Below, piece by piece: positions 4,276 to 59,856 of a stretch of 64,000 nt of DNA. Each line of letters begins with the position of its first letter. Position 1 is the first letter of the stretch. The notes under the pieces were generated by a model. The model saw only the letters and a program-made list of their open reading frames with translations, did not search any database and was not told the origin of the DNA. The DNA is taken from NCBI GenBank assembly GCA_963082975.1, contig OY720344.1, positions 434,001-498,000 of the forward strand, written 5' to 3'. The position numbers and the translations under genes are program-made. Source of the stretch: Labia minor. Lineage: Eukaryota; Arthropoda; Insecta; Dermaptera; Spongiphoridae.

Positions 4276-4956
4276 TTTGTTTTATTGTATTTTAAAAAAA
4301 TGTTACATGGTGGACCATGTATACGTAGTTAATACTAATACTATTTTTTATATCTTATATATAAAATTGTTAACCACTTTCACAGAAACGTGTAATCTAT
4401 CATTGATTTAATTTAAAATTTAATATAAAAACATAATAATTATAAATAATTTCATTCATATATATATATATAAATGTGTGTGTGTGTGTGTGTGTGTGTG
4501 TGTTGAGGTGAGTAATATGTATTGTTAATATTCATAGCACATCAATTTTCATTTGGTAAATACAAGTGGCAAGTTTTATTGATGTGAGTTGATGCATTAA
4601 ACTGTTGCCGCAACTACTCTTAAATGTAATTAAGATTCGTGTAATCAAAGAGAAAAGAGATAGAGATAGAGATAAACTCGGTCTCTTTCATTGATCTCAT
4701 TTCATGACTATATTAAATCAGCCATCGTTGGAATTTCATCAAAATAATATCAAATCTATTTAAAGTATCAAGCTACCAAACCGTTTTAATAGATGAACTA
4801 TACAAAATCAAAAAGACAGCGTTAGGTCAACGATCGACATAATCTATAATACATTCCATATTCATTTTAATATCGTAATAATAATTTAATAAATTTAACT
4901 TCGAAATTAATTAAATATCGAATCATTTCATATTTGATAGATATCTTAATTTTTTT
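4276..4956. other. Noncoding AT-rich stretch with TG microsatellite
   Basis: No gene or recognised element is visible. An (AT)n/(TG)n microsatellite lies at about 4460-4502. The last 100 bases drift into a degraded form of the satellite monomer that follows. Confidence 0.5.
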
Positions 4957-5112
4957 CAGTGATTTCTTAGAAAAAGCGTGAATTTCACAATATTTTAGGC
5001 AAAATGCTACTTTTTTAAATACAAATGTGAAATTTATTTATTATAAATCATTTTCTTCCATTTCTGATTTTATACGCAAATCTATTCATATTTCATCGAT
5101 ATCATAATTTTT
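4957..5112 (+). repeat. Isolated monomer of the 160-bp satellite
   Basis: The sequence from the tcagtgatttcttagaaaa motif through the aggcaaaatgctacttttt motif to the tcatatttcatcgatatc motif matches the monomers of the tandem array at 8161-9110 in the same orientation. It abuts the composite repeat that starts with taccgaccgacgatagtaag. Confidence 0.8.
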
Positions 5113-7998: not shown

Positions 7999-8160
7999 TT
8001 ATAAATAAAATAAAATTAAAAATATTTATGTTATATGCCTATCTGTTTTTTATTGCATTAATAGATATATTAAAATTATTTGAAATTGTTTCTGTAGCTG
8101 GAAATTATTTTACTTCAAACCGTCGGTCGGTTCGGACCTGGCCACAGGTCAACTTATTTT
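7999..8160 (-). repeat. Inverted outer part of the composite repeat
   Basis: This segment is the reverse complement of the 5211-5390 and 45753-45930 copies (landmark ccgtcggtcggttcggacctgg). It directly follows the CTAG end of the Helitron at 6227-7998 and leads straight into the satellite array. Confidence 0.75.
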
Positions 8161-9110
8161 CATTGATTTCATAGAAAAAGCGTGAATTATTCACAATATT
8201 TTAAGCAAAATGCTACTTTACAAATGTAAAATTTATTTATTATATATAATTTTCTTCCATTTCAGATTCTAAGCGCAAATCTATTCATATTTGATCGATA
8301 TCATAATTTTTTTTCATTGATTTCATAGAAAAAGCGGGAATTATTCACAATATTTCATACAAAATGCTACTTTTTTAAATACAAATGTAAAATTTATTTA
8401 TTATATATCCTTTTCTTCCATTTCTGAATCTAAACACGACTCAATTCATATTTGATAAATATTATAAGTTTTTTTCAATGATTTCATAGAAATAGCGTGA
8501 ATTTTTCACAATATTTTAGCCAAAATGCTACTTTTTTAATTACAAATGTAAAATTTATTTATTAAATATCATTTTCTTCCATTTCTGATTTTAAACGCAA
8601 ATCTATTCATATTTCATCGATATCATAATGTTTTTCATTGATTTCATAGAAATAGCGTGAATTTTTCATAATATTTCAGGCAAAATGCTACTTTTTTAAA
8701 TACAAATGTAAAATTTATTTATTAAATATCATTTTCTTCCATTTCTGAATCTAAACACGACTCAATTCATATTTGATCGATATCATAATTTTTTTCATTG
8801 ATTTCATAGGAAAAGCGTGAATTTTTCACAATATTTTAGGCAAAATGCTACTTTTTTAATATAAATGTATAATTTATTTATTATATATTATTTTTTTCCA
8901 TTTTTGAATCTAAACACGAATCAATTCATATTTCCTTGATATCTTTATTATTTTCATTAATATCGTACAAAAACTGTTTTTTTTAATATTTCATGCAAAA
9001 TACTATTTTTTTTCAATACAAGGGATACATTTATTTATTATATATATCATTTTCTTCTATTACTGATCCTAAACACAAATTAATTCATATTTCATGTAAA
9101 ATTGTAAATT
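8161..9110 (+). repeat. Tandem satellite, about 160-bp unit, six copies
   Basis: The motif cattgatttcatagaaa starts new units near 8161, 8315, 8476, 8636, 8796 and 8955, giving spacings of 154-161 bp. Each unit then holds the landmarks aggcaaaatgctac, aaatttatttattata, cattttcttccatttctg and ttcatattt.atcgatatc. The last unit is the most diverged. A single unit occurs at 4957-5112. This is a short noncoding array. Confidence 0.9.
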
Positions 9111-17978: not shown

Positions 17979-19453
17979 TCTATATATATAAAAAAAGGTT
18001 TTTGTCTGCACATTGCTCAGAATTTAAAATTTTTTGCATATTGCAATTATGTTAATTTTATTTTATAAATTGTCTCAAGTCTCTATTTTTGGATTTTCTC
18101 AAATTTAATTATAATTAGAAATATTCAATAATAATCTAGCAATGAAAATAAAATATCAAAATGTAATGATCAAGAAATATTATACTCTATTTCACTATTA
18201 TAACATATACAATACTTAAGAACCATAGGCGGAGGAAATATTAGGAGATATCATTGCGTGTTCAGGCCAAATCGACCAACATTAATTAAGATATTATCAT
18301 TATGACAGATATTAGGAAAAAAACCGCGAATTCAATATTCAATCTGTTCACTAATTATTTGTAGACTTTAGTAAAACATACACATGACTCAATATAGATC
18401 AGCATAAACTTTTTCAAATTTTGATCATCAAATTTGTCTTGAAGGTAGTAAAGAAAGAATAAGATGCGGAAATCAATTGTAAAATGTTAGGTTACCCAGA
18501 CGACTTAAATATAATAGGAGATTAGGAAATTACAATTGCAGATAGCGAGGAAAAATTAATGGAGGTTTGAAATTAATAGGGATAAGAAAAAATATTTAGT
18601 AACAAAGAGGAAGAGTATTAACATACAAAATCTTAAGATACAAAATGTAGAATTTGAATATGTAGAAAAATTGAATGTAATCACGAAGGATAATAATATT
18701 TGAGAAGAATTTAAATCGGGGTTGCAATCGGGAAACGCCTGTTATCTTGCAATAAAGAGGCTTATCTCTTCAAAATTATTATCAAAGGGAATATATAAAA
18801 AAATTATTTTGCCTGTTGCATTATATGGGTGGGAGGCATGGACTATGACCCTGGGAGATGAGAGTAGATTCAGAGTATTTGAGAATAGGATTCTTCCCTG
18901 CATTTATTGGCCAAAGAAAGATGAGGTCACCGGGGAATGGAGGAGACTGCATAACAAGAAATTGCATGGCCTCTCTGCATCTTCAGAAATAGTTAGGGTT
19001 ATAATAGGGAAAAAGCTGCGATAGGCAGGACACGTGGCTAGAATGGGAGAGGAAAAATATATTGGTGGGGAGACCGATTGGAAAACGTCCGCTTGGATAA
19101 CCAATGGCGCGTAGGAAGGGACGACAGAGAGTTGGGACAAGGGCTCAGGATAGGGACACTTGGAGAAATGTGGTTGTTGCGGCCAAGAACTTTCGAGTAT
19201 CTTTGAGCCACATAGGTAGATAGATATAACATATACAATAATAATAAATATAATTAATTTACTGATTAAATTGAAATATATTTTTAAATAAGAACACAAA
19301 AAGAAATGAATGTTTTTTGTAATATACGGATTGAAACAAAATGGATGAAAACCTTTTACTACTTTCAACCAAATACTATGTACCACTCGGGGGTACAGGG
19401 GGCGGAGCCCCCGTCTAGGTGTGAAGAGCGCCGAAGGCGCTCTGAGCAGCTAG
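17979..19453 (+). mobile_element. Non-autonomous Helitron with captured reverse-transcriptase fragment
   Basis: The element starts TCTATATATATAAAAAAAGG after an A and ends with the hairpin gagcgccgaaggcgctc, then tgagcagCTAG before a T. The terminal GC-rich block (gggggcggagcccccgtctagg) is shared with the other copies and with the autonomous Helitron at 48150-59039. From 18350 to 19220 the plus strand carries a decayed non-LTR reverse transcriptase ending in a gatagata tail, which indicates capture of a retrotransposon 3' end by the Helitron. It has no Rep or helicase of its own. Confidence 0.9.
18722..19024 (+). pseudogene. Captured reverse-transcriptase C-terminal fragment
   Basis: This 100-codon open frame inside the Helitron reads LPVALYGWEAWTMTLGDESR, FRVFENRILPCIYW and EWRRLHNKKLHGLSASSEIV, the well-known post-palm region of RTE-like/non-LTR polymerases. 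Upstream in other frames lie FVDFSKTY (~18360) and a YPDDLNIIGD block (~18493), the latter a changed YxDD catalytic motif. Downstream AGHVARMG and a degraded GRPRTRW-type region continue. The remnant is not a functional enzyme. Homologous fragments occur at 7090-7760, 30080-30950, 42340-43200 and 24195-24425. Confidence 0.8.
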
Positions 19454-31000: not shown

Positions 31001-31174
31001 TTTAAATAAGAACACAAAAAGAAATGAATGTTTTATGTAATATACTGATTGAAACAAAATGGATGAAAACCTTTTAATACTTTCAACCACCAAATACTAT
31101 GTACAACTCGGGGGTACAGGGGGCGGAGCCCCCGTCTAGGTGTGAAGAGCGCCGAAGGCGCTCTGAGCAGCTAG
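27875..31174 (+). mobile_element. Non-autonomous Helitron, long copy
   Basis: It has the same ends as the 17979-19453 element: TCTATATATATAAAAAAAGG after A, and the hairpin gagcgccgaaggcgctc followed by CTAG before T. It is 3.3 kb long because it keeps about 1.8 kb of AT-rich sequence (including a long (GTCT)n run at about 27988-28052) between the 5' end and the captured reverse-transcriptase part at 30080-30950. The latter reads FVDFSKTY, LPVALYGWEAW and IYWPKKDEVTG with many stops. It is nearly identical to the copy at 40408-43441. Confidence 0.9.
30080..30950 (+). pseudogene. Captured reverse-transcriptase remnant in Helitron
   Basis: These are plus-strand remnants in several frames: FVDFSKTY near 30082, DSIDPDKLFQIL-like near 30106, a YxDD-type block near 30212, and an open frame at 30527-30709 reading MPVALYGWEAWSMTLGDESR and CIYWPKKDEVTG. 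Stops and small indels prevent any product. The same set of fragments in the same order is in each Helitron of this family. Confidence 0.75.
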
Positions 31175-31883: not shown

Positions 31884-34565
<2,682 letters not shown>

Positions 34566-39720: not shown

Positions 39721-40407
39721 CCCGTACCTTTGTAATGATCCTGACTTAAGTAACATTCTCCCCTCTCCAACATCATTTCATATCTACTGCCCTCTCCTCT
39801 TTACCTTATAGATTCATTTTCGATTCCTATCCTTGCTTGTCCATGTTCGACTTAGGAGATTCATCTACAAAAGATACATTACCAAATATCCAACAATACA
39901 ATCGAATCTCCATTCATCCGTGTCTATTGATTCCTCTCCACAATCTCCCCTTCTTTACCCTTTACTTCCAACCCCCCCCCCCCCATCAGCCTTATACATC
40001 GCTCGTTTGCATGCTTTTTTTTTATCTCTACCGAGTTTTTAAATATTTACATAGGGTTTAAATAAAATTTGCATTTTATTTCATCTTGTCCTTCTTTCGT
40101 ACCGTTCGATCTGTTATTTTTTATTTTTTTTTTTTTTTTTTTTTGAACACATGAATTTTCTATCAGACTTCATTCTTTTTCTCTTTTTTTTAGTATTGGA
40201 TTAAATTTGTATTGAATCCTCATTGAGTTGAAAAAGTGTTTTTTTTTAGAATATTCCAAAATTAATTATCAAAGTTTGGACTTTGATATAATTGAATTTA
40301 AAATGGAAGTGTATCTAAATGATGCATAATATGATAGAAGGGATGAATGGAGGGATTGAATTGGATAGATGAATGTGGAAAGATTAGAGACTAGAAATAT
40401 AATAATA
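39721..40407. other. Noncoding, C-rich and T-rich runs
   Basis: There is a C-run at about 39971-39984 and a T-run at about 40121-40144. No gene was found. Confidence 0.4.
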
Positions 40408-40521
40408 TCTATATATATAAAAAAAGGTTTTTGTCTGCACATTGCTCAGAATTTAAAAATTTTTGCATATCTTCGCGTTTCATGACCTCTAGAATCCAAA
40501 AGTGACTTTAGAATTTTTCAC

Positions 40522-40564
<43 letters not shown>

Positions 40565-43441
40565 CGGAAAATTACTATTTTATAGACTCAGAATTGGCTG
40601 AACCGATTTCTTTGAAATTACATCACAATATTCTTATATACCTCTAGAGTAACATAGGCTATAAATTTTATTAATATCTTATCAATAACCGCAGAAATTA
40701 ATTTTTTAAAGTTTATATAATTCTCCGTGTTGTTCATTCAAGAGCAGCTCGCGGCTCACTGTCGGCCTAGCGGAATCATTTCAAACAATGAATTATCATA
40801 GAGATTCCCAATCGAAGAATTATTATAATATTTCCCTTTTTATTTTAAATTCTAATATACAAATATCAATTCAATTAAATAATTTATTCTAAAAGTTCTC
40901 AATTTAATTAAAATATTTATTAGATCATATTTTTATCTTAAATTATTTTTTATTTAATTGAATATTTCTTCTTTTCTATAATATATATATAATAATATAT
41001 AAATTTTATCATTGAATAATAAAAAAAAATATTATTTAACCTGAATTAAAATGACTGAATTATATTATCTTTGTTTTTTATTTTAATTTAATTACTCTAT
41101 TATTAATTACTAAATATATATATATTATATAAAAATTAAAATATGATGATATAAAGTTGTTTTAAATTTTTGACATTTTTAAATTGGGTATATTTTTTAA
41201 ATTTATTAAAATGTCTTTTTTATTTATTATGTTTAAAAGATTCATTTTTATTATGTGATATTAATAAAAAATAACGATGCTCTGTGCAAGTCGAATCATG
41301 TTGCACATAATTAAATAACAATTGCCAAACAAGGAATATAATATTTTTTTAAATTCTTATATTTAAATATCATTTCAATTAAATAATTTATTCTAAAAGG
41401 TCTCATTTTAATTAATTTAATAAAATATTTAAATCACCATTCAATTTTTTATTAATAGGCTTCTTTTTTTATTTTTAATTTTAATAAATTCTCTTTTTTT
41501 TTGATATGATATTAATAAAAAATAATATTAAATTGTATATAAATATAAAAATTAGAATATTTGAATTTTTTTAAATTTTAACACATGTAATCAATCATAT
41601 GCATTAAGAATGGAAAATTTTTAAAATCAACTTGCTATTAAATTCAGAAAAAAAATACTGATATATAGAATATATAGACTATTCGAATATAATTTAAAAC
41701 TCTTTCTCTCCTTCTATTTTAAATTAAAAAAACGGAGTTTTAAGAAATTTAGATGCCATATGCAACATGGGTGGGTAAATGAATTGAGCTGGAAAAGGAG
41801 GCAATTTATAATTTTCTTCTAATTCAGATTTAGGACAAATCGTACAACATTATATCAAATCTCGCTAAGAACATTCAATATTTTTGTACACAAATTATTC
41901 AGAGTATTGGCTAAGCGTATCACTCACAATCAGTTTATATTGAAATTTATATAAATTAACAAAGTAAAAATTTTTATTTGTTTAAATTTTATTATAATGT
42001 AATCAAAAAAAATTAAATATATAGATCACATGATTAAGAGAAGCAAAAAACTTGACAGAAAATAACTGTTGGATGGAGGTCGGACATGACAGAAACTGTA
42101 AGCGAAATCTTCATATTGCGACGAATAATTTTCAAATCCCCTAGCAAATGTAATGATCAAGAAATATTATACTCTATTTCACTATAATAACATAGAAAAT
42201 ACTTAAGAACCATAGGCGGTGGAAATATTAGGAGATATCATTGCGGGTTAAGGCCAAATCGATCAACATTAATTAAGATATTTTCATTATGACAGATATT
42301 AGGAAAAAAACTGCGAATTCAATATTTCTGTTCACTAATTATTTGTAGACTTTAGTAAAACATACACATGACTCAATATAGATCAGCATAAACTTTTTCA
42401 AATTTTGATCTTCAAATTTGTCTTGAAGGTAGTAAAGAAAAAATAAGATGAAGAAATCAATTGTAAAATGTTAGGTTACCCAGACGACTTAAATATAATA
42501 GGAGATTAGGAAATTGCAATTGCAGATAGCGAGGAAAAATTAATGGAGGTTTGAAATTAATAGTGATAAGAAAAAATATTTAGTAACAAAGAGGAAGAGT
42601 ATTGACATACAAAATCTTAAGATACAAAATGTAGAATTTGAATATGTAGAAAAATTGAATGTAATCACGAAGGATAATAATATTTGAGAAGAATTTAAAT
42701 CGGGGTTGCAATCGGGAAACTCCTGTTATCTTGCAATAAAGAGGCTTATCTCTTCAAAATTATTATCAAAGGGAATATATAAAAAAATTATTTTGCCTGT
42801 TGCATTATATGGGTGGGAGGCATGGTCTATGACCCTGGGAGATGAGAGTAGATTCTGAGTGTTTGAGAATAGGATTCTTCCCTGCATTTATTGGCCAAAG
42901 AAAGATGAGGTCACCGGGGAATGGGGGAGACAGCATAACAAGAAATTGCATGGTCTCTCTGCATCTTCAGAAATAGTTAGGGTTATAAAAGGGAAAAAGC
43001 TGCGATAGGCAGGGCACGTGGCTAGAATGGGAGAGGAAAAAGATATTGGTGGGAAGACCGATTGGAAAACGTCCGCTTGGAAAACCAATGACGCGTAGGA
43101 AGGGACGTAAGAGAGATGGAACAAGGGCTCAGGATAGGGACACTTGGAGAAATGTGGTTGTTGCGGCTAAGAACTTTAGAGTATCTTTGAGCCACATAGG
43201 TAGATAGATATAACATATACAATAATAATATATATAATTAATATAGTGATTAAATTAAAATATATTTTTTAAATAAGAACACAAAAAGAAATGAATGTTT
43301 TATGTAATATACTGATTGAAACAAAATGGATGAAAACCTTTTACTACTTTCAACCACCAAATACTATGTACCACTCGGGGGTACAGGGGGCGGAGCCCCC
43401 GTCTAGGTGTGAAGAGCGCCGAAGGCGCTCTGAGCAGCTAG
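40408..43441 (+). mobile_element. Non-autonomous Helitron, near-twin of the 27.9-kb copy
   Basis: The ends are identical in type to the 27875-31174 element (TCTATATATATAAAAAAAGG after A; hairpin and gagcagCTAG before T). The first 1.7 kb is almost base-for-base the same, differing mainly in the number of GTCT units. About 250 bp present at 29630-29885 are missing here (junction near 42146). The captured reverse-transcriptase fragment lies at 42340-43200. Confidence 0.92.
42340..43200 (+). pseudogene. Captured reverse-transcriptase remnant in Helitron
   Basis: The same blocks as in the other Helitron copies are visible in plus-strand frames: FVDFSKTY near 42347, a YPDD-type block near 42478, LPVALYGWEAWSMTLGDES near 42795, and AGHVARMGEEKDIGG near 43010 followed by a gatagata tail. 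It is interrupted by stops. Confidence 0.75.
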
Positions 43442-46599: not shown

Positions 46600-48085
46600 A
46601 ATGTTAATATACTAGGAAAAATTATATATATATATATTTGTTTATTTTTAAGATATTAAACCGCTCTAAGGATTTTTTTTTTAATTCACACCATAGATAA
46701 TATTTATGAAGAAAAATCGATCTGTATTGATTTCAACCTCGAGAATAATCAACTTTATTAATATTTTCTTAATTTAAAATAGTAAATGTAAATGACGTCA
46801 CAAATTACGTCATCCATATTGAAATTTGCCTCCCGCCATTCTTATTTAATTATAATTGTATTCTTTATAAATATTATCTATGGTGTGAATTAAAAATTTT
46901 TTTATAGTTAAAATATTTTTAAAATTTTAATTTCGAAATAACTTTAAAACAATTTAAAAATATTTATTTTAATAATATTTTAGAATAAAATTATGAAATA
47001 TATATTATCATTCCCCCCCCCAAAAAAAAAAAAAAAATATTCATGAAGTTAGTAACATATAAAGGAAGAAATTTCAAATAAATTGTTGAATAAATTTGAT
47101 TTATCATAATATTTAATAAATTATATTATATTAATTAAAATGTTTTTTTTTTAAATTAAATAAAATGAAAAAATATAATCACCACCTTTCTTAATTAAAA
47201 TATAGACAAGTACAGGTGTCAATATAATTTCAGAATAGATATTATTATCAGTAGTAATCCATGTATGGTCGAAACAGTCTATTCTATAAGCTATTGCTTT
47301 TTTGAAAAATATAAAACTGAAGCCATCTAATTATAACAACACACATATATATATATATATATCTACTCGTATGAATAATATAGAATCAAATATTTTATCA
47401 AGTAAATTTGTATATAATTTTCATCTTGAAATGAAAATCAAGTTATTTTAATTAATTTATACTATTTTAGGAAACAAATTTTTGATGGAGAGCGAACAGA
47501 CAGACAGACAGACGCCAAGTGATGTTGAGAAAAACGTTATAATAATAAAACACACATTCATATATAAAATATATATTCATTTTAAGTTTTTTGAATGAAA
47601 TGTAATACACTTAAAGTTTTTTTTCACTTTTTTTTATTCAATATCCGTATACTTTCTTTATTTTTTACTTCTATTTCAAAATAAACGTATCTAAAGTTAT
47701 TTTTTATTTTAATGTATATGTAGGTAAATTTATATATAGGTTTAAACATGTATATATATCATATATCACCCTTAAATAATATATATAAGAGAGATATGGA
47801 ATGAATAAAAGAAATTTATGCAGCAATGTCAATTTGATTTTTGATAACCAAAAGATTGATGGCTTTCAATATAGCCTACCAAACCATACTAAAAGCTCCA
47901 GATTTGGCTATATTTGAAAAATGGAAGATGAAAAGTGTCCTGATATTGACAGACACCCTCTTTAAATGTATATATATATTTCCAAATTTACCTTTATTTT
48001 CATCATCTTATATTATTCTAGTTGGGTATAGGTTTTTTTTTCTTCTTGTTCTTGTAAAATACATTTAAATACATACATATAAATA
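46600..48085. other. Noncoding AT-rich stretch with repeat module
   Basis: At 46790-47060 there is a copy of the AT-rich module found at 680-890 (tgacgtca pair, gaaatttgcctcccgcc, C9/A15 run, then attcatg). (AT)n lies near 47345-47362. A 75-codon plus-strand frame at 47841-48068 has no recognised features. Confidence 0.45.
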
Positions 48086-48149
48086 CAGGTTTGTTCAAAA
48101 GAAAAGGTGAATTTTTAATTATTTCGAAAAGTATTTATTTATTCAATAA
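48086..48149 (-). mobile_element. Left part of a mariner split by a Helitron
   Basis: It starts after TA (48084-48085) with the inverted-repeat end caggtttgttcaaaagaaaa then ggtgaattttt. On the minus strand it continues the transposase C-terminus as LLNK and a stop. The rest of the element is at 59040-59854. Between them lies the Helitron. Confidence 0.85.
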
Positions 48150-48220
48150 CTAGCTGCTCCGAGCGCCTTCGGCGCTCTCCACACCTAGACGGGGGCTCCG
48201 CCCCCTGTACCCCCTGAAGT
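48150..48220 (-). terminator. Helitron 3' terminus with hairpin
   Basis: On the minus strand the sequence is gggggcggagcccccgtcta, then gtgtgg, hairpin gagcgccgaaggcgctc, then ggagcagCTAG. The hairpin about 11 bases before CTAG is the element's transfer terminator in Helitron models. An upstream gggggcggagccccc palindrome is a second stem, shared by all copies in the window. Confidence 0.85.
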
Positions 48221-48244
48221 CTATCTTTTTTAACCTCTCTTCTA

Positions 48245-48592
48245 TTTCTTCTTCTGTCTCATTAGAGCGACCAGCTGCATGTAGACCCTATCATTAAAAA
48301 GCCTATTTTCTCTCTCAGACAGAGACTCAATTAATCGTTTTTTAATTTTAGGCTCCCTATCTTTGTTTTGTAATTCTAACAAATCAAATAACACTATCTG
48401 ACTTGATTTTAAACGTTCCTTCCTTTACCTACAAAACTCTTGAACAGAACAATGTGTGGGCTTCTCTCGAGTGACGCTTCCACGAACTTTTGCCACCCTT
48501 CTGGGACCCACTAAAAACACTGACTGGGATGTCTGCCTGAGGGCTTCAAAATAAGAGGCGAACTTAAGGTTCAAACCTAATTCGAAAATAAT
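48245..48592 (-). pseudogene. Unidentified coding-like passenger in the Helitron
   Basis: Between the helicase gene and the 3' terminus a single minus-strand frame is open for 55 codons (48592-48428), has one TAA (48427-48425) and continues open for 60 more (48424-48245). It reads KFASYFEALRQTSQSVFLVG, PRRVAKVRGSVTREKPTHCS and, after the stop, SSQIVLFDLLELQNKDREPK with a basic tail. The DNA is less AT-rich than the flanks. TGTAG|GTAAAG at the stop resembles a splice donor. It is not part of the known Rep-helicase. A captured host or transposon fragment is likely; the family is not recognised. Confidence 0.4.
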
Positions 48593-48887
48593 CTAAAGGG
48601 ACAATGGGAACCTAAAGGTGACAAATATTTAAAAAGTGAGTGCCTCAATAATCAACAACTTATTACAACACACAAACTCATCTATTCAGGTTACGTTCTT
48701 GTGATGGCATAGTTTATAATGGGTACCTGCTGTAGTGACATTATTTATTTTTAATAGCACAATTCACCAGAATAGATAAGTTTGCGATCAATCTGTAATA
48801 TAAAATAATTAAATAAAACGTATATAATCATTTAAAAATAAGTAATCGCTTTATTGTCAAGTGAATCATAAAAAATCACTTTTGTTT

Positions 48888-51145
48888 TTATTGTAGCGTT
48901 TTGTGATATACGATGTTTTTTGTTTGATTACATGGCGCATAGACGAACAAATCTGATGGTTTTCCAACACGGGAACAGGCAACATACAATTGACCGTGTG
49001 AGAAACATGGGTTTTCTAGATTAATACCACAAACACTTAATGATTGCCCCTGGGACTTGTTTATGGTCATAGCAAAAGCAAGTCGCACTGGAAACTGTAG
49101 TCGTTTAAACTCAAACGGTACATCATTCGGAATCATTGGGATGCGTGGTATCAAAACATCTTCTCCTTTTTACTTTCCTTTAATTATAGTTGCTTCTATC
49201 AAGTTGTTCATTAATTTTTTTATCGCTAACCGTGTGCCGTTGCAAAGATACGGTTGGTTGATATTTCGTAACATTATAACTACCGATCCAACCTTTAATT
49301 GAAGATTGTGAGGTGGCAATCCTGGAAAATCCAGCAAGTTTAAAAATTCCGGTGGATAGTTGACATCATCTTTGTTAGTAGCCGAATCAACTGATTTATA
49401 TATCTTCAATTCCCCTGTAATTTGTTCTTGAATTTTTAAATTTAATTCATTTTCAGTTTCTGTAATTTTGAGGAACATTTGGAAACACCTTTTGAATAAG
49501 TTCATCTGTTGATCGAGTTAACTGACAAAAACTTTGAGGAAAGTTAATGCAGCCAGTCAACATGTCTTTAGGAAATTTGCCATCACCAATATCAATTAGT
49601 TGTTTAGAGAATATGTCTCCAGATTGGTCATTTTGCACTGCGACACGCATATTTTTGCTTAAATGTAATACCTTGACCTGTTTCCATAAATTGGAGGACT
49701 TCAAACATGCATTGAATTTATCAGCTGGCGTTGATCATGGAATTACTGGCAATGTTTGACGAAAATCTCCTGCTAATAAAATCATTGCACCACCAAATCG
49801 GTTATTATTGCTCCGTATATCTTTTTAGGTTCTATCTAAAGCCTCCAAAGATTTTCTATGTGCCATCGTGCATTCATCCCAAACAATCAATTTACATTGC
49901 TGCAAAACCTTTGCCATTGGAGAGTTCTTCGAAATGTTGCAGGTTGGATTTTCATTGCTTTGCATATTTAATGGCAATTTTAGTGCTGAATGGGCTGTTC
50001 GACCACCTTCAAGTAAAGTTGCTGCGATTCCCGACGATGCGAGTGCAAGTGCAATTTTATTTTGTGAGCGAATTGTTGCTAATATTAATGAAATCAAAAA
50101 CGTTTTTCCTGTACCACCAGGGGCATCTAAGAAGTAAATCCCTCCAGATTCATCATTTGTTACTTTCAAAAGAGTATCAAATACATACTTCTGTTGTGCA
50201 TTCAATAGTGGAAGATTTGTTTGGATTAATTCTTTCATAGTGTTGAGATCATACTGTTTTTCTCGATGCAACTCTTGGTTATGCATTGGACGATTGGGCG
50301 CGGCCAGTCCTAATTGAAATAATCGTTTGTTTGACATCATCAAGAACATGTCCTCAATTGAAATCAATGCTTGATTGTAAATTTCTTCGCTTATTTGTAT
50401 ATTTGGATTTCCCGTTCTATTCCGTATTTGATATAAAATATCATCACACATATTATCTTTGTACTTGATCCACAAATCAATCGGGTTTGATGGGAAGCAT
50501 GTAGATATGATTATAGAAAACAATGTTCGTATTTGATGAGCATGTGATGATATTACAGCATCATTGAGAGTTTGATCCCAATGAGCGTCATTTTCTAGCA
50601 ATTGCAAACGTTGACAGGCTAAATGTTGGAATGATGTTGGGCCACGTACATTGACTAATAGAAGTCGTAAATAAAAACATTCATCATTGCTTGGATGTAC
50701 TGAAAAAATTCGACCAATCGCATCTGTAGAGTATATATCTGGGTATCCTGGAACAGGTTTTCCTTGTTTCCGCCGAATAAATTTTTTTGAGGATTGATTC
50801 CAAGTATAATATTTTGGCATTTCAGAATATAGCAATCTTTGTGCAAAAATATCATTTTGGCATGTCTCAAAAAAACTGGTTAATGTAGTAGATGATGGCT
50901 GAGCAGCTCTTTGTACTGCGTTCTGTGCTGTAAAATACACTCTTTGTCCATTTTCTAAGTGTACAGCTAAGTGAACAACAGAAGGGTGTCTCTCATGAAT
51001 AGGAAAATAAAATATTCGCCAAATTGCTTCATTACTACTAACATAGCGGCCCATTTGGTATTGGGTAACTTCATCATTGGAATTATCTGCACCAATTCCA
51101 ATCACAGCCATATCACTCCCTTTGGTTACATATTTGCATATATAT
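48888..51145 (-). pseudogene. Helitron helicase half (PIF1-like), with stops
   Basis: From 51111 the frame reads MAVIGIGADNSNDEV, continuing the Rep end, then the helicase: Walker A DAPGGTGKT at about 50101-50126, Walker B KLIVWDECTMAH at about 49858-49893. TAA (49827-49825) and TGA (49737-49735) interrupt the same frame; between them lies LAGDFRQTLPVIP. After SKNMRVAVQ a frameshift with loss of about 25-30 residues occurs near 49455-49505. The frame resumes LKVGSVVIMLRNINQPYLCN, has a TAA at 49172-49170, and ends with AFAMTINKSQGQSL, YVACSRVGKPSDLF and the stop at 48888. This ATPase would unwind the donor strand during rolling-circle transposition; here it cannot be made. Confidence 0.9.
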
Positions 51146-52346
51146 TGTAATGGTTTTCTTGGGTTTCTAGGGGGGGGAAGGGGAAGGGGAAAGAATCAAT
51201 TAAAAAAAATTAATATAAATAATTTTTTTATTTTAATTAATATTTAATTTAATTTAAATTAAATTGATAAATTTAGAATTAATCAGAAGATAATTAATAT
51301 TGATTTTAATATTAATTAATAAATACATTAATTAATTTCTTATATTCCAATCAATTAGTAATTATGATTTAAATTAATAATTGAGGTTTTAAAAGATAAT
51401 GAAGGTAGGAGAAATGAGGGGAAAAAATATGGCGTCCTTCTAATTCGACAAGGGTCGTGAATGAAGGAGATAATTTTAATTTGTGGTCCAGATAAAGATA
51501 TAGCACTCAGATAACAAGGATTCCAGCGTGAAATAGAGAAAGAGTTGTACAATAGAAGAGAGTGATTAGATTATTAGATGTTAACTTTTAATAAATTTTA
51601 TTATAAGTAAAATAATAACGTTAGAAAATTTTCTTTCAAGAATCTTTGTTATTTTAAGCAATAAATCATATTAATTAGTTTTACAAATGGTGATAGAAAT
51701 AATATCAATTAGTAACAAGAACTTAAATTATAATAAAACAAAAGGAATGAAATAAAGTCTTATCCGTGTCGTGGTGTGGAAATGGCGGCTGACATATGAT
51801 GTCGTGATGATTTCCAAGAGGTCCAGATGAGTAGATTTTGTGAAGATCGAAAGAACCAGGTTGTCTTGTGTCTTCACGGGTTGAGATCAATTCCAATATT
51901 TAAATATTTTATTTGGAAACGAATGAGAGTTAAAAAGTATTTAGAAACGTAAAAATTTTATAAAAGCTGATTGAGCAAAATAGAACACGTCTATTCTCTC
52001 TGATGTCTCGATCAAGAATAATCTTTCCAACAATATCAATAATCAAAATCAACACTCGGATAAATTCACTCACACTCTCACATAAACACACACAGACCTG
52101 GAGTTCTTCCGTCTCTTTCTAATTCTAATTACAAAGTTGTATTTTAATTAAATAATTTATTTTATAAATTAACTAATTATCTCTCTAAGTGAGATCACAT
52201 TTCAAATTCTTAGAACTATTAAATTATATAATATTAAAATACATAAAAAGAAAGGGATAGAGATATTGGCATTAATAAATAAAAAAACTTAAATATAAAA
52301 TAAAGAAATTATTAAAATTAGGGACTGAATTGAAAATATCAGTACA
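51146..52346 (-). repeat. 3' LTR (left copy)
   Basis: The copy starts tgtaatggttttcttggg and ends atatcagtaca on the plus strand (TG...CA). It is 1201 bp long. It matches the right LTR throughout except for one A fewer in the run near 52287. It includes a G8 run near its edge. Confidence 0.95.
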
Positions 52347-52358
52347 TCCTCCACCTTT
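52347..52358 (-). other. Polypurine tract of the LTR element
   Basis: On the minus strand aaaggtggagga directly precedes the LTR start TGTACTGATA. A purine run at this position primes plus-strand DNA synthesis in LTR retroelements and so fixes the orientation. Confidence 0.75.
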
Positions 52359-53352
52359 GTAAAAAAAAAAAAAATATTTCTTTTGGAGATGAAATGTTCA
52401 CAAATCACAAAAAAATATAATTTTTTTTTTTTTTTAACATAATTGTTATGAATACTTAAAAAATATTACATTGGCATTTGTATATAACAAAACAACAAAA
52501 AACTTTCAGATATTTGGCCCTTTTTTTTTTTAAAGAATACCAAATTAATACTGGCAATACAGAGGTTTGATATGGTGGATTCTAAGAAAACAATTTATAA
52601 AGAAGTTAACAAGTAGCAGAAACACAACGAATTGGTTCACACTGACACCCACAGAATAATTATAGTACTCTAACGTGACACATTAAGGTTGGAGCAAGTC
52701 TGTCAATAATCATATTTAATAATAAGTAATACAGGTCCATTGGAAAATTATCAGTTTCGATTTTCTCATTTCTACTTAAATTTAATTAGAATTCATGTTT
52801 CATTCTTTATTCAATACTTTATTGCTTTCATAGCATTTTATATTCTCTTTAATTATTCATATCTCATTTTCATTTAACATTTGTTTCTCTATAAAAATCC
52901 TATTATCTATAACATCAAATTCTTCTATATTATTTTTCGCAAATATCAGAAACCTCTCCTTACCATCTCACAATAGAAGCGATTTCAATCATCAAAACAG
53001 ACTAAGAGACAGACCCGCTTGGTGGCTCATATGTCAAGGCAAAGTCTTCAAATTACACTTGTTAAAAAAATGACAAAAAATTATTAATTGGAATAAAAGG
53101 GTTTCAAAATCCTCCTATTATACTTGCCGATATTTTTATTTGTGTGAGCGTTCTTAATTTCATAAGTTCTCTCTCCACCATGGAGCTTTTTATTGATTTG
53201 AAATGGTCCTTCGATTTGATTTAACTAATACCAAATCTCTTTAAAACATCAGATAATTCAATATTCTTTTAAGGGGGATGGTTAAAAGAAACTTAGAAAA
53301 TTTTTTTAAAATTGAAGAAGGCAAAGCAAGGTTTTTATTTACATAAAATTTT
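52359..53352. other. Noncoding interior of the LTR element
   Basis: About 1 kb between the ORF stop and the polypurine tract shows A/T homopolymers and no polymerase motif in any frame. A pol gene is therefore absent rather than merely broken into recognisable pieces. Confidence 0.6.
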
Positions 53353-54357
53353 TTAATGAAGACAAATTAAAATTTTATCCGAGGCAATTAATTTAAATCT
53401 TTTCTTTCCTCGATCCCAGAGGATATTTTGGGATTTAAATTTTAGTGTTTTAAAATGTGATGTATAATTATCTTGATTGACAAACCATTGCTTCATTCTC
53501 TTCTTTGGCTTTCCCTTTTTCGTTAAATATGGTTTCAATCTCTTGTTATTTATACATTTTTTAAGATTTTTTATAAACATTTTTCTTTTCCATTTGTACT
53601 TAATATTTTCTAGTATCTGCTTCTTTATCAGATTCTTTATTTTCATTACTTTAGTATTTTCTTTAATTTCTTGTATATTTTCTAGTTCTTCTTTTGTTTC
53701 TACTTCCATCTTTTCAAATTCATTTTCATTTTCTATATTAAAATCGGTGTTCTCTTCTTTAGAAACCATTTCTTCAGCATTTTCATCAATTTCGATTTCA
53801 ATTAACATTTTACTCTCCTCTTTCGGAGTAGATTTAGAAGAGGTTTCTTCTTCTAGGGGTGTTTCATCAGTTTTTCCAATTGATTCATTTACTTTTTCTT
53901 CTTCTTTCATATCAAGATTCTCTAGTTTATTTTCCTGTTCCTCTAGTGTTTTATTTAAATCATTACTATGTTGTGGTAATTTTCCATTTAATTTTAGAGA
54001 GAAATTTCGAACATCATTTCTTAAAAGGTTAGTATTTTTATTTAATTTTTCAGTTTGATTGTCTAGTTTTATATTTAATTCACTTCTAAATTCTCCCAAT
54101 AGCTGTTTCAATAGCTGAGATTGATCATCAAATTTTTTATTTATTTCACTTCTAATTTCGCCAAACAACTTTGTCATTATTGTGACAAAATCCACTTGAC
54201 TAAGAGGGTTATCACATGGAACCGCCTCAACACTCACCTGAGTATCCGTGTGACCAATCAATTGACTTTCTACAGACATCGGGCTAACATCATCAAATAA
54301 TTGGGGTTGAAACATCTCTGTATCAGCCTCCGTATTAATATTACTATCAGTGGCCAT
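53353..54357 (-). CDS. Coiled-coil, Gag-like protein of the LTR element
   Basis: This is an intact frame of 334 codons with ATG at 54357, about 180 bases after the 5' LTR. Residues ~55-130 form a likely coiled coil (FVTIMTKLFGEIRSEINKKF, then LLKQLLGEFRSELNIKLDNQ in heptad-like spacing). Residues ~130-240 are acidic and rich in E, N and S. Residues ~240-334 are strongly basic (KKQILENIKYKWKRKMFIKN). This layout could serve particle assembly and nucleic-acid binding, but there is no CCHC knuckle, so the Gag assignment rests on position and charge alone. The protein was not recognised otherwise. The open frame fits the youth of the insertion. Confidence 0.65.
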   Translation of the reverse strand: MATDSNINTEADTEMFQPQLFDDVSPMSVESQLIGHTDTQVSVEAVPCDNPLSQVDFVTIMTKLFGEIRSEINKKFDDQSQLLKQLLGEFRSELNIKLDNQTEKLNKNTNLLRNDVRNFSLKLNGKLPQHSNDLNKTLEEQENKLENLDMKEEEKVNESIGKTDETPLEEETSSKSTPKEESKMLIEIEIDENAEEMVSKEENTDFNIENENEFEKMEVETKEELENIQEIKENTKVMKIKNLIKKQILENIKYKWKRKMFIKNLKKCINNKRLKPYLTKKGKPKKRMKQWFVNQDNYTSHFKTLKFKSQNILWDRGKKRFKLIASDKILICLH

Positions 54358-54516
54358 ATTGCTTAAAAATTAAAAAAATTAGTTACAAATAAAAATGTAA
54401 AATTCAATTTTAACAATACAAAATTTCCTGCGTGTCTTCTCTCTCTCTATTTCAACTCCGGTAAAAAAACAATTAAATTAGAAGCCAAATTATTTAATTA
54501 TTTTTAATTAAAACAA

Positions 54517-54535
54517 TCTCGGGGGGATGCCTCCA
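54517..54535 (-). other. Candidate primer-binding site
   Basis: Immediately after the 5' LTR the minus strand reads TGGAGGCATCCCCCCGAG. Starting with TGG at this place fits pairing with a tRNA 3' CCA end. The matching tRNA was not identified. Confidence 0.55.
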
Positions 54536-55737
54536 TGTAATGGTTTTCTTGGGTTTCTAGGGGGGGGAAGGGGAAGGGGAAAGAATCAATTAAAAAAAAT
54601 TAATATAAATAATTTTTTTATTTTAATTAATATTTAATTTAATTTAAATTAAATTGATAAATTTAGAATTAATCAGAAGATAATTAATATTGATTTTAAT
54701 ATTAATTAATAAATACATTAATTAATTTCTTATATTCCAATCAATTAGTAATTATGATTTAAATTAATAATTGAGGTTTTAAAAGATAATGAAGGTAGGA
54801 GAAATGAGGGGAAAAAATATGGCGTCCTTCTAATTCGACAAGGGTCGTGAATGAAGGAGATAATTTTAATTTGTGGTCCAGATAAAGATATAGCACTCAG
54901 ATAACAAGGATTCCAGCGTGAAATAGAGAAAGAGTTGTACAATAGAAGAGAGTGATTAGATTATTAGATGTTAACTTTTAATAAATTTTATTATAAGTAA
55001 AATAATAACGTTAGAAAATTTTCTTTCAAGAATCTTTGTTATTTTAAGCAATAAATCATATTAATTAGTTTTACAAATGGTGATAGAAATAATATCAATT
55101 AGTAACAAGAACTTAAATTATAATAAAACAAAAGGAATGAAATAAAGTCTTATCCGTGTCGTGGTGTGGAAATGGCGGCTGACATATGATGTCGTGATGA
55201 TTTCCAAGAGGTCCAGATGAGTAGATTTTGTGAAGATCGAAAGAACCAGGTTGTCTTGTGTCTTCACGGGTTGAGATCAATTCCAATATTTAAATATTTT
55301 ATTTGGAAACGAATGAGAGTTAAAAAGTATTTAGAAACGTAAAAATTTTATAAAAGCTGATTGAGCAAAATAGAACACGTCTATTCTCTCTGATGTCTCG
55401 ATCAAGAATAATCTTTCCAACAATATCAATAATCAAAATCAACACTCGGATAAATTCACTCACACTCTCACATAAACACACACAGACCTGGAGTTCTTCC
55501 GTCTCTTTCTAATTCTAATTACAAAGTTGTATTTTAATTAAATAATTTATTTTATAAATTAACTAATTATCTCTCTAAGTGAGATCACATTTCAAATTCT
55601 TAGAACTATTAAATTATATAATATTAAAATACATAAAAAGAAAGGGATAGAGATATTGGCATTAATAAATAAAAAAAACTTAAATATAAAATAAAGAAAT
55701 TATTAAAATTAGGGACTGAATTGAAAATATCAGTACA
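54536..55737 (-). repeat. 5' LTR (right copy)
   Basis: The copy is 1202 bp and nearly identical to the left one. A promoter and polyadenylation signal are expected here; AATAAA-like text is too common in this AT-rich LTR to place one. Confidence 0.95.
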
Positions 55738-55743
55738 ATATAT

Positions 55744-56719
55744 TTAATAGATTTCACTGAATGGTAAGATTCAACGTTGATGTGAGCTTTGAAAGTCTTT
55801 GATAAAATGGGTGAATATGGTACAATCCAACGATTATCTATTTCAATATCGTGTTGATTTAATTTGACAATTGTTGATCTTCCATTGTCTGCTGTTGATC
55901 GGCGACGATACAGTGGATAACCGTCATTACCAGTAATTGTTTCCGATATTAATGTCCGTGGATATCGCTTTGAACATTTACCATCCACCATACACGGTGA
56001 ATTTTGATTAAGCGTTCCGCAGGGACCATGTATCATATTTTTGATTACTACCTCATGCAATCCAGGATCTACTTCTACATTAGGGATTTCAGCTGATATC
56101 ACTGCATCAACTTCATTTGGCCTTATCTTTTCAACCAACCAAATCAAAATGTGTGAATGTGGCAATCCTCGTTTCTGCCACTCGACAGAATACATCCAGC
56201 AGCGTGTCTCACCAAACACATAATGTTTTACAATGAAATCCATTAAAGATTTCAACTTTTGTCTAAAGACTCTGGCTGTAATATCATGACGATCAATGGC
56301 TTATTGTCCAGATAATAACTCCTGCTTGATTTCTATCCATTTCGGATTACATGTAAAGGTAATAAATAAATCTGCTGTTCCATAATTACGGACATACGAC
56401 ATGGCATCTTGAGCATATTCATGCATATGTCGAGGGCTTCCGATGTATGTTGCTGGAAGAATAGTCATCCGACCAACATTCTGTGCATTTCCATCAGTAT
56501 TAATCGCATCTCGAAGGTGAATATACTCTTCAGATCGAAGTTTGGTCTGATTCAACCTGATGAATATCAATCTCTCCGTTTCAATTTTAACATACATGTC
56601 AACAACATATTTGTGATATAATCGCCGACATTTCAATATGTGATTGTCTTCATTTTCCCGAATCATTAAGCGATATGAATAATAGTTCATTGAACTGACT
56701 TTTTTGTTGGTTTCAGAAC
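55744..56719 (-). pseudogene. Helitron Rep domain (HUH nuclease), third exon
   Basis: After the acceptor at 56720 the frame reads MNYYSYRLMIRENEDNHILK and NVGRMTILPATYIGSPRHMH, then YGTADLFITFTCNPKW, the first Rep block. A TAA at 56303-56301 interrupts it, and it continues in the same frame with the HUH motif GLPHSHILIWL near 56150. The third block is SVKSIKY, with the first catalytic Tyr codon at 55742-55740. The second Tyr (CKYVTKGSD) is on the far side of the LTR insertion at 51132-51130. This nuclease would nick and join DNA ends during transposition. Confidence 0.92.
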
Positions 56720-56824
56720 CTGTAAATAAATTTTTGTTTTAATAACATTGAAATATAAAATTAAAATACATAATATATAGTGATTAAGATATTTACTTCA
56801 TAGCTAAACTAATAATTCAATTAC
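56720..56824 (-). other. Intron 2 of the Helitron gene
   Basis: The donor ACAG|GTAATT and acceptor TTTACAG| bracket 105 bases that contain stops. Splicing joins NPITG to SETNKKVSSMNYYSYR, which matches the continuous protein of other Helitrons. The join is phase 1. Confidence 0.75.
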
Positions 56825-57320
56825 CTGTAATGGGATTTATCATCTTGATTGAGAAATCATAGCCATCTTCACCTTTCCAAAATATAATGGGATATTGCAG
56901 TGCATCATATGAGCGGTGTGTTTCCATTATACGTTGTAATTGATCATTCCGACGATGTAAAACAATATCACGGGATTCCAAGTTTTCTCCAACTACAACG
57001 ATGGCAACTTCATGTATAGTTGGTGCATTAAAACGTCTCGCATGTTGGCCCACAGGTGTTTTATCAGCTCTGATTACAATTTTGTGATTATCAGATGGCA
57101 TCATATCCAGTGCAGTTTTAAACAATATTATCAATTGATTGTGTTCATGAAATAAATGTTGTAATTGTTCTACAATAGACCTCTTTACTGAATTGTTATG
57201 TGATAAACGCTGATCAATTTCTTGTGATGAATTGCCCATGAAATAAATTTGTAGGAATTTGTAGTCTCTATCTGACAATGGTAACAGTGAACCTGCTCTG
57301 TGATATATTTGGCCTTGTAT
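56825..57320 (-). CDS. Helitron Rep protein, second exon
   Basis: This is an open exon of 496 bases: IQGQIYHRAGSLLPLSDRDY at the start, then YFMGNSSQEIDQRLSHN, MMPSDNHKIVIRADKTPVGQ and HRRNDQLQRIMETHRSYDAL, ending DFSIKMINPITG. This is the conserved Helitron N-terminal region upstream of the nuclease motifs. No stop is present in this exon. Confidence 0.88.
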
Positions 57321-57730
57321 CTGTAAATTTAAAAAAAATATTTTGTTTGTACCAAACGCTATAAAATAAAATAAAATAAAATAAATAAGCAATGTGCCGT
57401 ATGAAATTATGGATTGTCAGTTGCTGAATATAAATAATATTTGTTACTAAAAAATATATCTGTCTCCTAATTTGAATAACCAAATAATATTTAATATGCT
57501 TAGGTATCTCAATATATAATAATTAGTTGTAACTAATAACTATAATCAAATAATTATATTCGGTTTCAAAATAATATAATTGTGGCTAAAACTGAATCAC
57601 CAAATAATATGATGACTAAGTAATAATATTTCTTGGGGATTAGGGAATTGAAGATTAGTGACACATTTTAACTTAGGTGACAGAAAATATTGTTCGCTAA
57701 AATAATTATGATTAATTAATAAATACATAC
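57321..57730 (-). other. Intron 1 of the Helitron gene
   Basis: The donor AAG|GTATGT at 57731/57730 and acceptor TTTACAG| at 57321 remove 410 AT-rich bases. The joined protein NFKPTFK-IQGQIYHRAG matches the usual uninterrupted Helitron sequence. The join is phase 0. Confidence 0.75.
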
Positions 57731-58165
57731 CTTGAAAGTTGGCTTGAAATTTTCTCCAACTACATTTGTTGCCCCAAATGAAGTCATTTGAAAGCAATTA
57801 TTGTATTTTTTGATATTTGTCAAAAAGTGTATGGATTCTGTTCCTATTCCTGAAACCAATGAGTACAATGGCTCTGGTGGTGGATCCAATGGTATCAATT
57901 TCACTTTGCCATTTGAGCAACACAATCCATTGGCTTCATTTTTGTATTTCAATGCCTTTTAATGTGAGCAAACCGAGTTCATAGATCCAATAGCAACACA
58001 TTGATAATTATTGTAGTCAGTTGAAACATCATAACTAAAAGCAGCTCGATTCAAACTTCCTCGATTATTAGTTAAATGTTGACATTCTTGATTAGATCGG
58101 AAATTATTTTGATTTGTAGCATTTCGGGTTCTTCTACCTAAATTACTTCGTCTTCTAGCAGGCAT
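57731..58165 (-). pseudogene. Helitron Rep protein, first exon
   Basis: The ATG at 58165 starts MPARRRSNLGRRTRNATNQ, the standard basic start of animal Helitron proteins. A TAA at 57961-57959 interrupts the same frame before KALKYKNEANGLCCSNGKVK, a Cys-containing block conserved in the family. The exon ends FGATNVVGENFKPTFK at the GTATGT donor. Confidence 0.88.
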
Positions 58166-59039
58166 ATCGAATATAATTTAAGATATTTGATTTGTTTATA
58201 TTTGATGTAATATAAACAATACATGTAACCATCAATCTGATTAAAATGAATTGAACTTGGGGTCCTCAATAATACAAACAAACAATTTTAGCTAATGAGA
58301 TTAAAAAATAAAAAATATATAAACTTACCTGAAAATAATTAGATATTTATTTAATAAAATTAAATTTTTAAGTAAATAAATCTTATAAATAAATATGAAA
58401 AAATAATTAAATCAAAATTCAAAATTAATCAAGTAAAAAAGGCAATTGAAATGTTTTAAATTATCTAAAAAAAAACAATTATTAATATAAAAATACAAAT
58501 AAAATGATCAAAAAATAAAAATAAATTAAATTAAATAAATAAAACGTTTTAAATAGAAATACAAACTAATTGATATTATGAAAAACAATTTTATAAACAA
58601 ATGTATTTAATTAAATTAATAAATTTAAAAAATATTAAATGATATTTAGCTTAAATATAAAAATTAAAATAAAAAGAAATTACTTAAAAAAATTAAAACT
58701 ATAATAATAATATTAAAATATATATAAAATTACCTGAAAATAATTAGATATTTATTTGATAAAATTAATTATTTATCTTAAAAATATTTTATAATCTATA
58801 GAATAATTTAATTATTTTAAAAAACGGCGGTAATCATTTTTTATCCCTAGCTGTGACGTCATTCATAAGAAGGTGTAAAGAAAAGGGCTGTTTTTAGGGT
58901 TTTCCCGACAATTATTCGATTTTTTCTCGCCGGAAAAACCATCCTTGGACTTCAACGAACATTTTAAAAAAAGAATTGTCAAAATTGGTCCAGACGTTAT
59001 TGAGTGATGCAATTACAAAAGTCATTTTTATTTATAAGA
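58166..59039 (-). promoter_or_regulatory. Helitron 5' leader and terminus
   Basis: This holds the 5' TC terminus at 59039 and about 870 bases before the ATG. The first 200 bases on the minus strand are less AT-rich (ccggcgagaaaaaatcg, tgacgtcac). The rest is A/T-rich with two similar gcttacctgaaaataatt-type segments (58325-58360, 58725-58750). A promoter is expected but no element could be placed. Confidence 0.5.
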
Positions 59040-59854
59040 TATCCATTTTGTTCCCTTCAAAGTAATTCCTCTCAGATAAATGCATTTATGCCAGCGCTTC
59101 TTCCAATCGTTGAAGCACTTCTGAAATGCACTTTTCGGTGTGGCCATCAGCTCGTTCTTTGATTCCGACTTTATCTCATCAATTGTGGCAAAACGCTTTC
59201 CTTTCCTCGTTCTCTTTAGTTTTGAGAATAGGAAAAAGTCACAGGGAGCCAAATCTGGTGAATGCGGTGGTTGAATTACAATGATTACATTGTTGTGTTT
59301 TGCCAAAAAATCACGAACAAGCAATGGTTGTGTGAACTGGTGGGTGTATTATCGTGATGCAGAATCCATGATTTGTTTTTCTACAATTCGTTCGGCCGTT
59401 TGAGTCGTATTGCTTCATGCAAACGTTGCATACCCTCCTTGTAGTATTTCTAACAGTATTATTAAGAGTAAGACTTGTTGGAAAGAGCCATTGTATAATC
59501 GAAGAAAACAGTGAGCAAAACCTTCACATTTCATCGAACTTGGCGTTCTTTTTTAAAGCGCTTGTATCATTTAAAAATATTTTTTTGAGACAAAGTAGAC
59601 TCGCCGAATGCCACAGTCAACATTTTAAGTGCGTTGGGGCACTTTATTCCATTTTAATTCAGATTCTTGAAAAACCGAAGAACAGCAAAAAAAATGTGAC
59701 TAACTTTTTCAGTTGTCAAAAACAAACTTCTAATCCAAAATGGCTAATAATGCCAACCTATGAGATAAATATCTGTACCAACATAACAAAAAAAAAAAAT
59801 TCGATAATCGAATGTAGTCAGTCAAAATTAACCTTTTCTTTTGAACAGACCTCG
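59040..59854 (-). pseudogene. Right part of the split mariner, transposase remnant
   Basis: The outer end on the minus strand is cgaggtctgttcaaaagaaa after TA (59855-59856), the inverted partner of 48086. Moving inward, frames give FGESTLSQKNIF (~59600) and NVKVLLTVFFDYTMAL (~59500) and then an open stretch at 59324-59040: LVRDFLAKHNNVIIVIQPPH, SPDLAPCDFFLFSKLKRTRK and FQKCFNDWKKRWHKCIYLRG. Several parts of the usual 1.3-kb gene are missing (total with the left part about 0.88 kb), so it was internally deleted as well as split. Confidence 0.85.
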
Positions 59855-59856
59855 TA

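What the first reader, a model, noticed from the sequence alone, without database searches (positions are those of the whole stretch)
48084..59856. Three-level nest: LTR element inside a Helitron inside a mariner
Each level is supported by its own ends. Mariner: inverted ends next to TA at 48086 and 59854. Helitron: TC start and hairpin-CTAG end with A^T target at 59039 and 48150. LTR element: TG...CA ends and 6-bp duplication at 51146 and 55737. The order of events (mariner, then Helitron, then LTR) is therefore readable from one locus.
Basis: seen in the sequence. Interest (0 to 1): 0.8.

Follow-up and report, generated by a model that had tools for sequence, protein, structure and literature searches.

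The report
Three jumping genes nested by insertion
One mobile element sits inside a second that sits inside a third, and uninterrupted copies elsewhere in the same genome confirm both nested insertions; this is an ordinary kind of genome history, although the youngest element belongs to a very recent family that lacks its own copying enzymes and favours long AT repeats.

Summary
The nest is real. A decayed mariner (48086-59854, TA on both sides) is split by a Helitron (59039 to 48150, minus strand), whose Rep gene is split by an LTR element (51146-55737). Joined-flank searches found empty sites for both inner insertions: 40 of 40 scored mariner matches cross the Helitron site, and 5 of 5 close Helitron copies read through the LTR site. 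The Helitron edges recur: the same TC start in 20 of 20 fetched copies, and T after the 3' end in 20 of 20.

Correction: the '6-bp' duplication is more likely the family's 4-bp ATAT inside an AT run.

Addition: the LTR element has no pol. It belongs to a young family whose LTRs and Gag N-terminus are shared with a Ty3/gypsy gag-pol element (L039). All 19 independent insertions examined lie at ATAT, most in long (AT)n runs; this one falls in the Helitron's twin-tyrosine motif. Its 334-aa ORF joins a Gag-like part to an unmatched basic tail. The tail showed no stops in 30 genome matches, but pairwise dN/dS near 1 gives no sign of protein-level selection.

Nested transposons are common: new member of known kinds.

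The parts
48084..48085 (.). TA next to the left mariner end
48086..48149 (-). mariner, left arm (64 bp, end of the transposase side)
48150..51145 (-). Helitron, 3' part, ending in CTAG at 48150; includes one copy of the ATAT duplication (51142-51145)
48161..48177 (-). Helitron 3' hairpin (7-bp stem, 3-base loop), 7 bases before CTAG
48888..51145 (-). Helitron gene, PIF1-type helicase and second half of the tyrosine motif, in several reading pieces
51146..52346 (-). LTR (3' LTR in the element's orientation)
52347..52358 (-). purine-rich stretch next to the 3' LTR (likely polypurine tract)
   Evidence: by eye
53353..54357 (-). 334-aa ORF of the LTR element: residues 1-156 Gag-like, the rest unmatched and basic
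54518..54535 (-). TGGAGGCATCC..., likely tRNA primer site after the 5' LTR; tRNA not identified
   Evidence: by eye
54536..55737 (-). LTR (5' LTR in the element's orientation)
55738..59039 (-). Helitron, 5' part, beginning with TC at 59039
55744..56690 (-). Helitron gene, Rep part (Helitron_like_N; HSH motif by eye), cut by the LTR element before the tyrosine motif
59040..59854 (-). mariner, right arm (815 bp) with a transposase remnant
59855..59856 (.). TA next to the right mariner end

Best explanation
Three successive transpositions. A mariner inserted at a TA; it is now 879 bp and decayed. A Helitron then inserted between an A and a T of that mariner without duplicating the target. Last, a pol-less Ty3/gypsy-type LTR element inserted at an ATAT run in the Helitron's Rep gene, in the codons of the twin-tyrosine motif. 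The order is shown by the nesting and by empty sites at both inner levels. That the LTR element was copied and inserted by enzymes of a partner such as L039 is inferred from near-identical LTRs, shared leader and Gag N-terminus, and its own lack of pol.
For: Empty sites: mariner 40 of 40 scored matches of 2566 candidates, and 6 of 7 loci in an alignment; Helitron 5 of 5 close copies. Recurring Helitron edges; L094 carries both ends. Rep and PIF1 domains. LTR pair without substitution. LTR family: 40 scored of 130 candidates, 38 at 99-100% (the window's own two included) and two at 96%. L039 has related LTRs plus gag and pol. ATAT on both sides in 19 of 19 independent insertions. Four of five LTR-free Helitron copies read KYICKYVTKG or KYLCKYVTKG across the site; in L063 two extra bases shift the frame.
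Against: Nothing found against the nesting. The mariner's own TA empty site was not testable. The partner reading rests on one fetched gag-pol copy; the window's LTRs differ from its LTRs by about 2%, and searches for more gag-pol copies and for a donor of the window-type LTR block did not complete.
Confidence: 0.96

Rival explanations
1. Assembly artefact: two or more unrelated stretches joined at repeat edges, so that the nest does not exist in the organism.
For: All three families are repeated, and repeats are where assemblies join wrongly.
Against: Every inner edge falls exactly on an element end that recurs in other copies; the outer arms match one mariner family on both sides and complete one another; no N in the window. 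Reads were not available.
Confidence: 0.02
2. The LTR element made a true 6-bp duplication here, not 4 bp in a longer AT run.
For: Four of five LTR-free Helitron copies have the shorter AT run that a 6-bp join predicts, and that run keeps the Rep frame.
Against: Five informative members of the same family share only 4 bp; AT runs gain or lose units, as in L063; Drosophila Ty3/gypsy families with ATAT targets have 4-bp duplications (PMC3276498, passages).
Confidence: 0.25
3. The pieces did not insert one after another here; an already nested block (for instance Helitron with LTR element) arrived as one unit in the mariner.
For: Helitrons can move with an insert inside them; the Helitron ends around the LTR element are complete.
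Against: The five LTR-free close copies show that the Helitron family moves without it. No second locus with the same Helitron-LTR junction turned up, where the only half matches at the junction edge were the window's own, apart from C2:51585208, which ends four bases past the join and was not inspected. The mariner-then-Helitron order is unaffected.
Confidence: 0.03

Closest known systems
mariner (IS630-Tc1-mariner)
   Same: TA flanks, inverted ends of about 30 bp, remnant that looks like the end of a mariner transposase
   Different: only 879 bp; frame broken; the DDE_3 hit (E 0.028) is below Pfam's cut-off
Helitron with RepHel, TC...hairpin-CTAG, A^T target (compare Helraiser, PMC4778049, passages read)
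   Same: both termini, hairpin, A^T target, Rep part with HSH and Y-x3-Y, PIF1 helicase
   Different: this copy's gene is cut by the LTR element and lies in several reading pieces
Ty3/gypsy elements with ATAT targets and 4-bp duplication (297/Idefix and 412 groups of Drosophila; PMC3276498 and PMC5408687, passages read)
   Same: ATAT target, 4-bp duplication, RT-RNaseH-integrase order in the gag-pol relative
   Different: bias to long (AT)n runs; the window element has no pol; clade of the relative not determined
Endogenous florendoviruses of plants (PMC4241990, passages read)
   Same: frequent location in TA dinucleotide repeats
   Different: plant Caulimoviridae; only the landing place is alike; those authors suggest capture during break repair
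Non-autonomous LTR elements (TRIM, LARD, TR-GAG; definitions recalled, TRIM seen in the listing abstract of PMC3532108)
   Same: LTRs, no pol, presumed mobilisation by a partner
   Different: keeps only the N-terminal Gag part joined to an unmatched basic tail; 4.6 kb, so larger than a TRIM

Membership tests
mariner | TA at both ends | tested here: met
mariner | terminal inverted repeats shared with family copies | tested here: met
mariner | DDE transposase domain | tested here: inconclusive
   DDE_3 E 0.028, 14.7 bits against a cut-off of 28.6
Helitron | 5' TC and 3' hairpin followed by CTRR | tested here: met
Helitron | insertion between A and T without duplication | tested here: met
   A before TC in 19 of 20; T after the 3' end in 20 of 20; the window mariner joins without gain or loss at the junction
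Helitron | Rep (HUH and two tyrosines) plus helicase | tested here: met
   Helitron_like_N and PIF1 above cut-off; HSH and Y-x3-Y by eye
LTR retrotransposon | direct repeats TG...CA with target duplication | tested here: met
LTR retrotransposon | tRNA primer site and polypurine tract | tested here: inconclusive
   candidate stretches in the right places; matching tRNA not searched
Ty3/gypsy, autonomous member | pol with RT, RNase H and integrase | tested here: not met
   absent from the window element; present in L039, protease hit RVP below cut-off
non-autonomous derivative of a Ty3/gypsy element | same LTRs and non-coding ends as a gag-pol element | tested here: met
   to L039: LTR 98%, 866 bp at 96.5%, 617 bp at 91%
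TR-GAG type element | recognisable gag domain | tested here: inconclusive
   156 residues 74% identical to the start of L039's Gag; no Pfam gag hit for either protein

The most novel reading that the evidence does not exclude
The youngest element is not passive debris but a satellite of a Ty3/gypsy element that encodes its own chimaeric protein, the partner's Gag N-terminal coiled-coil-like part joined to a basic tail, which enters or blocks the partner's particles so that the satellite's RNA is copied in preference, and which spreads into (AT)n repeats.
Probability: 0.18. Interest if true: 0.55.

Novelty: new member of a known kind. Interest (0 to 1): 0.3.

Why it matters
Both nested insertions are checked at base level against uninterrupted copies in the same genome, so the order of events is secure. 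The wider value lies in the youngest level: a pol-less LTR element with nearly identical LTR pairs, mosaic LTRs and a gag-pol relative in the same genome, a tractable case for studying how retrotransposon parasites multiply. It also shows how a preference for ATAT can break a Helitron at a conserved motif whose codons happen to spell that target.

Tried and rejected
Purifying selection on the tail of the non-autonomous ORF: tested, not supported. Pairwise dN/dS in the tail is 0.47-2.25 over 21 pairs of seven loci. L118 and L119 were left out of that count as near copies of L117, L121 and L122 as short fragments. The lack of stops points the other way, but that figure is biased: for L114, L115 and L120 only their longest open stretch was compared, and these copies are truncated or altered elsewhere.

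A plain deletion origin of the short element: not favoured, because about 700 bp of its interior have no convincing match in L039.

Rows dropped: L007 from the mariner count (it did not align across the site); L058 from the target-site table (its LTR match starts at base 41); L047 counted with L046 (same 500-bp flank).

Helitron ends guessed by distance: several stretches missed the ends because copies differ in length; replaced by direct searches of each end.

Not completed: searches for more gag-pol copies and for a donor of the window-type LTR block were all answered busy. The tRNA behind the primer site and the organism's name were not determined. Paper searches: (listings seen); passages read; no paper was read whole.
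Full report
What was claimed.

Setting. The window is C1:434001-498000 of an unnamed 604-Mb eukaryote assembly in 71 contigs. It has 28.6% G+C outside the LTR element and no N.

Level 1, mariner. The left end starts at 48086 after TA (48084-48085), the right end finishes at 59854 before TA (59855-59856). The ends are inverted repeats (91% over 34 bp). The arms total 879 bp. The right arm carries a remnant that looks like the end of a mariner transposase, but its only Pfam hit is below cut-off (DDE_3, E 0.028).

Level 2, Helitron. Minus strand, from TC at 59039 to CTAG at 48150. For the 5' end, 40 of 822 candidates were scored, all at 97-100%, and 20 places were fetched: 20 of 20 start at exactly this TC, 19 of 20 after A (L090 after T). 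For the 3' end, 20 copies were read, four at 98-100% and sixteen at 88-93%: 20 of 20 have T after the end, 18 end in CTAG, L096 in CTAC, L104 in CCAG (ends were located by a fuzzy match to the last 15 bases). L094 is a 2.9-kb copy with both ends. A hairpin with a 7-bp stem precedes CTAG. The interior encodes a Rep part (Helitron_like_N, E 1.1e-36) and a PIF1 helicase (E 1.2e-38).

Empty site for the Helitron. The mariner arms joined across it (184 nt) have 40 scored matches of 2566 candidates; 40 of 40 run through the junction at 91-94% identity, with length differences of a few bases. In an earlier alignment of seven loci, six read through and L007 did not align; at the junction the window gains and loses nothing against those six, though L008 has six extra bases a little to the left.

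Level 3, LTR element. 51146-55737, minus strand. The LTRs differ by one 1-bp indel. TGGAGGCATCC... follows the 5' LTR, and a purine-rich stretch precedes the 3' LTR. The interior is 2189 bp; its one long ORF on the element's strand is 334 aa, and no pol was found.

Empty site for the LTR element. The Helitron joined across it (212 nt) has 15 genome matches; two are the window's own halves. Five run through at 96-99%; of the other eight, six also span the junction at 71-77% identity and two do not, or barely do. The five close copies were fetched: four fit a 6-bp join, L063 has two more bases and fits a 4-bp join. Translated, L060, L061 and L062 read KYICKYVTKG and L059 KYLCKYVTKG across the site; L062 has a frameshift just after it, and L063's two extra bases shift the frame. 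The motif has two tyrosines four residues apart, as do Y727 and Y731 of Helraiser, whose mutation stops transposition (PMC4778049, passages); the match of the two motifs is by eye. The insertion lies in the codons of this motif.

Target site. Twenty sites were tabled (19 loci and the window); all have ATAT on both sides. L046 and L047 share flanks, so 19 are independent. In L039, L049, L054, L056 and L057 the flanks share only 4 bp. The family duplication is therefore 4 bp, and the ATATAT here probably includes two bases of the target's AT run. ATAT targets with 4-bp duplications are known in Drosophila Ty3/gypsy groups (PMC3276498, PMC5408687, passages). Here the bias goes further: the AT run before insertion averages 20.6 bp over 19 insertions, against 6.6 bp for 1150 ATAT sites in the window, with 0 of 20,000 random draws as high. 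The background is this window only, and three of 19 insertions are in runs of 4 or 6 bp. Location in TA repeats is reported for plant florendoviruses (PMC4241990, passages).

A young family with a gag-pol relative. One search scored 40 of 130 candidates for the last 338 bp of the LTR: 38 at 99-100%, two at 96%. Of 20 fetched loci, 15 hold the short element (L056 as a tandem of two with a shared middle LTR), three are solo LTRs (L042, L043, L052), one is a truncated LTR (L058), and one, L039, is 8.8 kb. Fifteen LTR pairs (all but the window's and L056) hold six substitutions in all. L039 has a 760-aa gag frame and a 989-aa pol frame with RT, RNase H and integrase above cut-off and a protease hit just below. 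The window element shares with it the LTR (98%), 866 bp before the 3' LTR (96.5%) and 617 bp of leader and gag start (91%). That the relative supplies the enzymes is inferred.

Mosaic LTRs. The LTRs of the window and L040 share about 20 alleles in alignment columns 416-876 that, with one exception at one column, no other aligned LTR has, while columns 877 to the end hardly vary and the interiors differ by 1-3 mismatches. L042 and L049 share another private block in columns 80-210. Template switching between co-packaged RNAs is the simplest reading (inference).

The ORF. Residues 1-156 are 74% identical to the start of L039's Gag, the first 79 or so identical; the rest has no convincing match in Gag or Pol and the ORF has no Pfam hit above cut-off. 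The tail (188 aa) has 30 genome matches, 20 of them 100% identical, the window among these, and none of the 30 has a stop inside the match. dN/dS in the tail is 0.47-2.25 over 21 pairs: no sign of purifying selection on the amino acids. About 5.9 stops were expected among at least 90 changes and none was seen (rough chance 0.003), but three of the seven loci were compared only over their open stretch, so this is weak. The role of the protein is open.

Order and age. Nesting gives the order; divergence agrees: mariner 6-9% from its nearest matches, Helitron about 1-2.4% substitutions in blocks over 500 bp against L112, LTR pair none. I give no absolute dates.

Verdict. Observation and interpretation hold. 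Nested transposons are common and each part is of a known kind. The less ordinary part is the youngest element: pol-less, recently multiplied, drawn to (AT)n, with a chimaeric ORF of unknown role.

Noticed in passing
7934-7998, 19389-19453, 31110-31174, 43377-43441: Four more copies of the Helitron 3' end (91-97% over 65 bp) in the opposite orientation; three of them share about 1.3-1.4 kb at 95-97% with each other, and 27862-29625 matches 40397-42146 at 97%.
   Followed up: partly
L056 (C1:53725166-53734150): Tandem LTR-interior-LTR-interior-LTR of the same short element.
   Followed up: no
L046 and L047 (C5, about 68 kb apart): Two copies of the LTR element with identical 500-bp flanks on one side, so probably a segmental duplication after insertion.
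   Followed up: no
window 51146-52346 and 54536-55737; L040, L042, L049: LTR mosaics: private allele blocks in LTRs around nearly identical interiors.
   Followed up: partly
window 53353-54357; L113-L120: ORF family with a Gag-like start and a basic tail; length variants between subfamilies are in frame, open, dN/dS near 1.
   Followed up: partly
window 58309-58388 and 58714-58794: An 81-bp stretch repeated at 86% inside the Helitron's 5' part; copy L112 has the blocks of this part in another arrangement.
   Followed up: no
window 15952-17619, minus strand: 555-aa ORF that looks by eye like a non-LTR reverse transcriptase (FADD motif); not searched.
   Followed up: no
window 32880-33539, minus strand: 219-aa ORF that by recall resembles hAT/ZBED-type transposase-derived proteins; not searched.
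   Followed up: no
window 8151-9093: Tandem-like direct repeats about 155-160 or 315 bp apart at 86% identity, also matching 4909-5113 at 85-90%.
   Followed up: no
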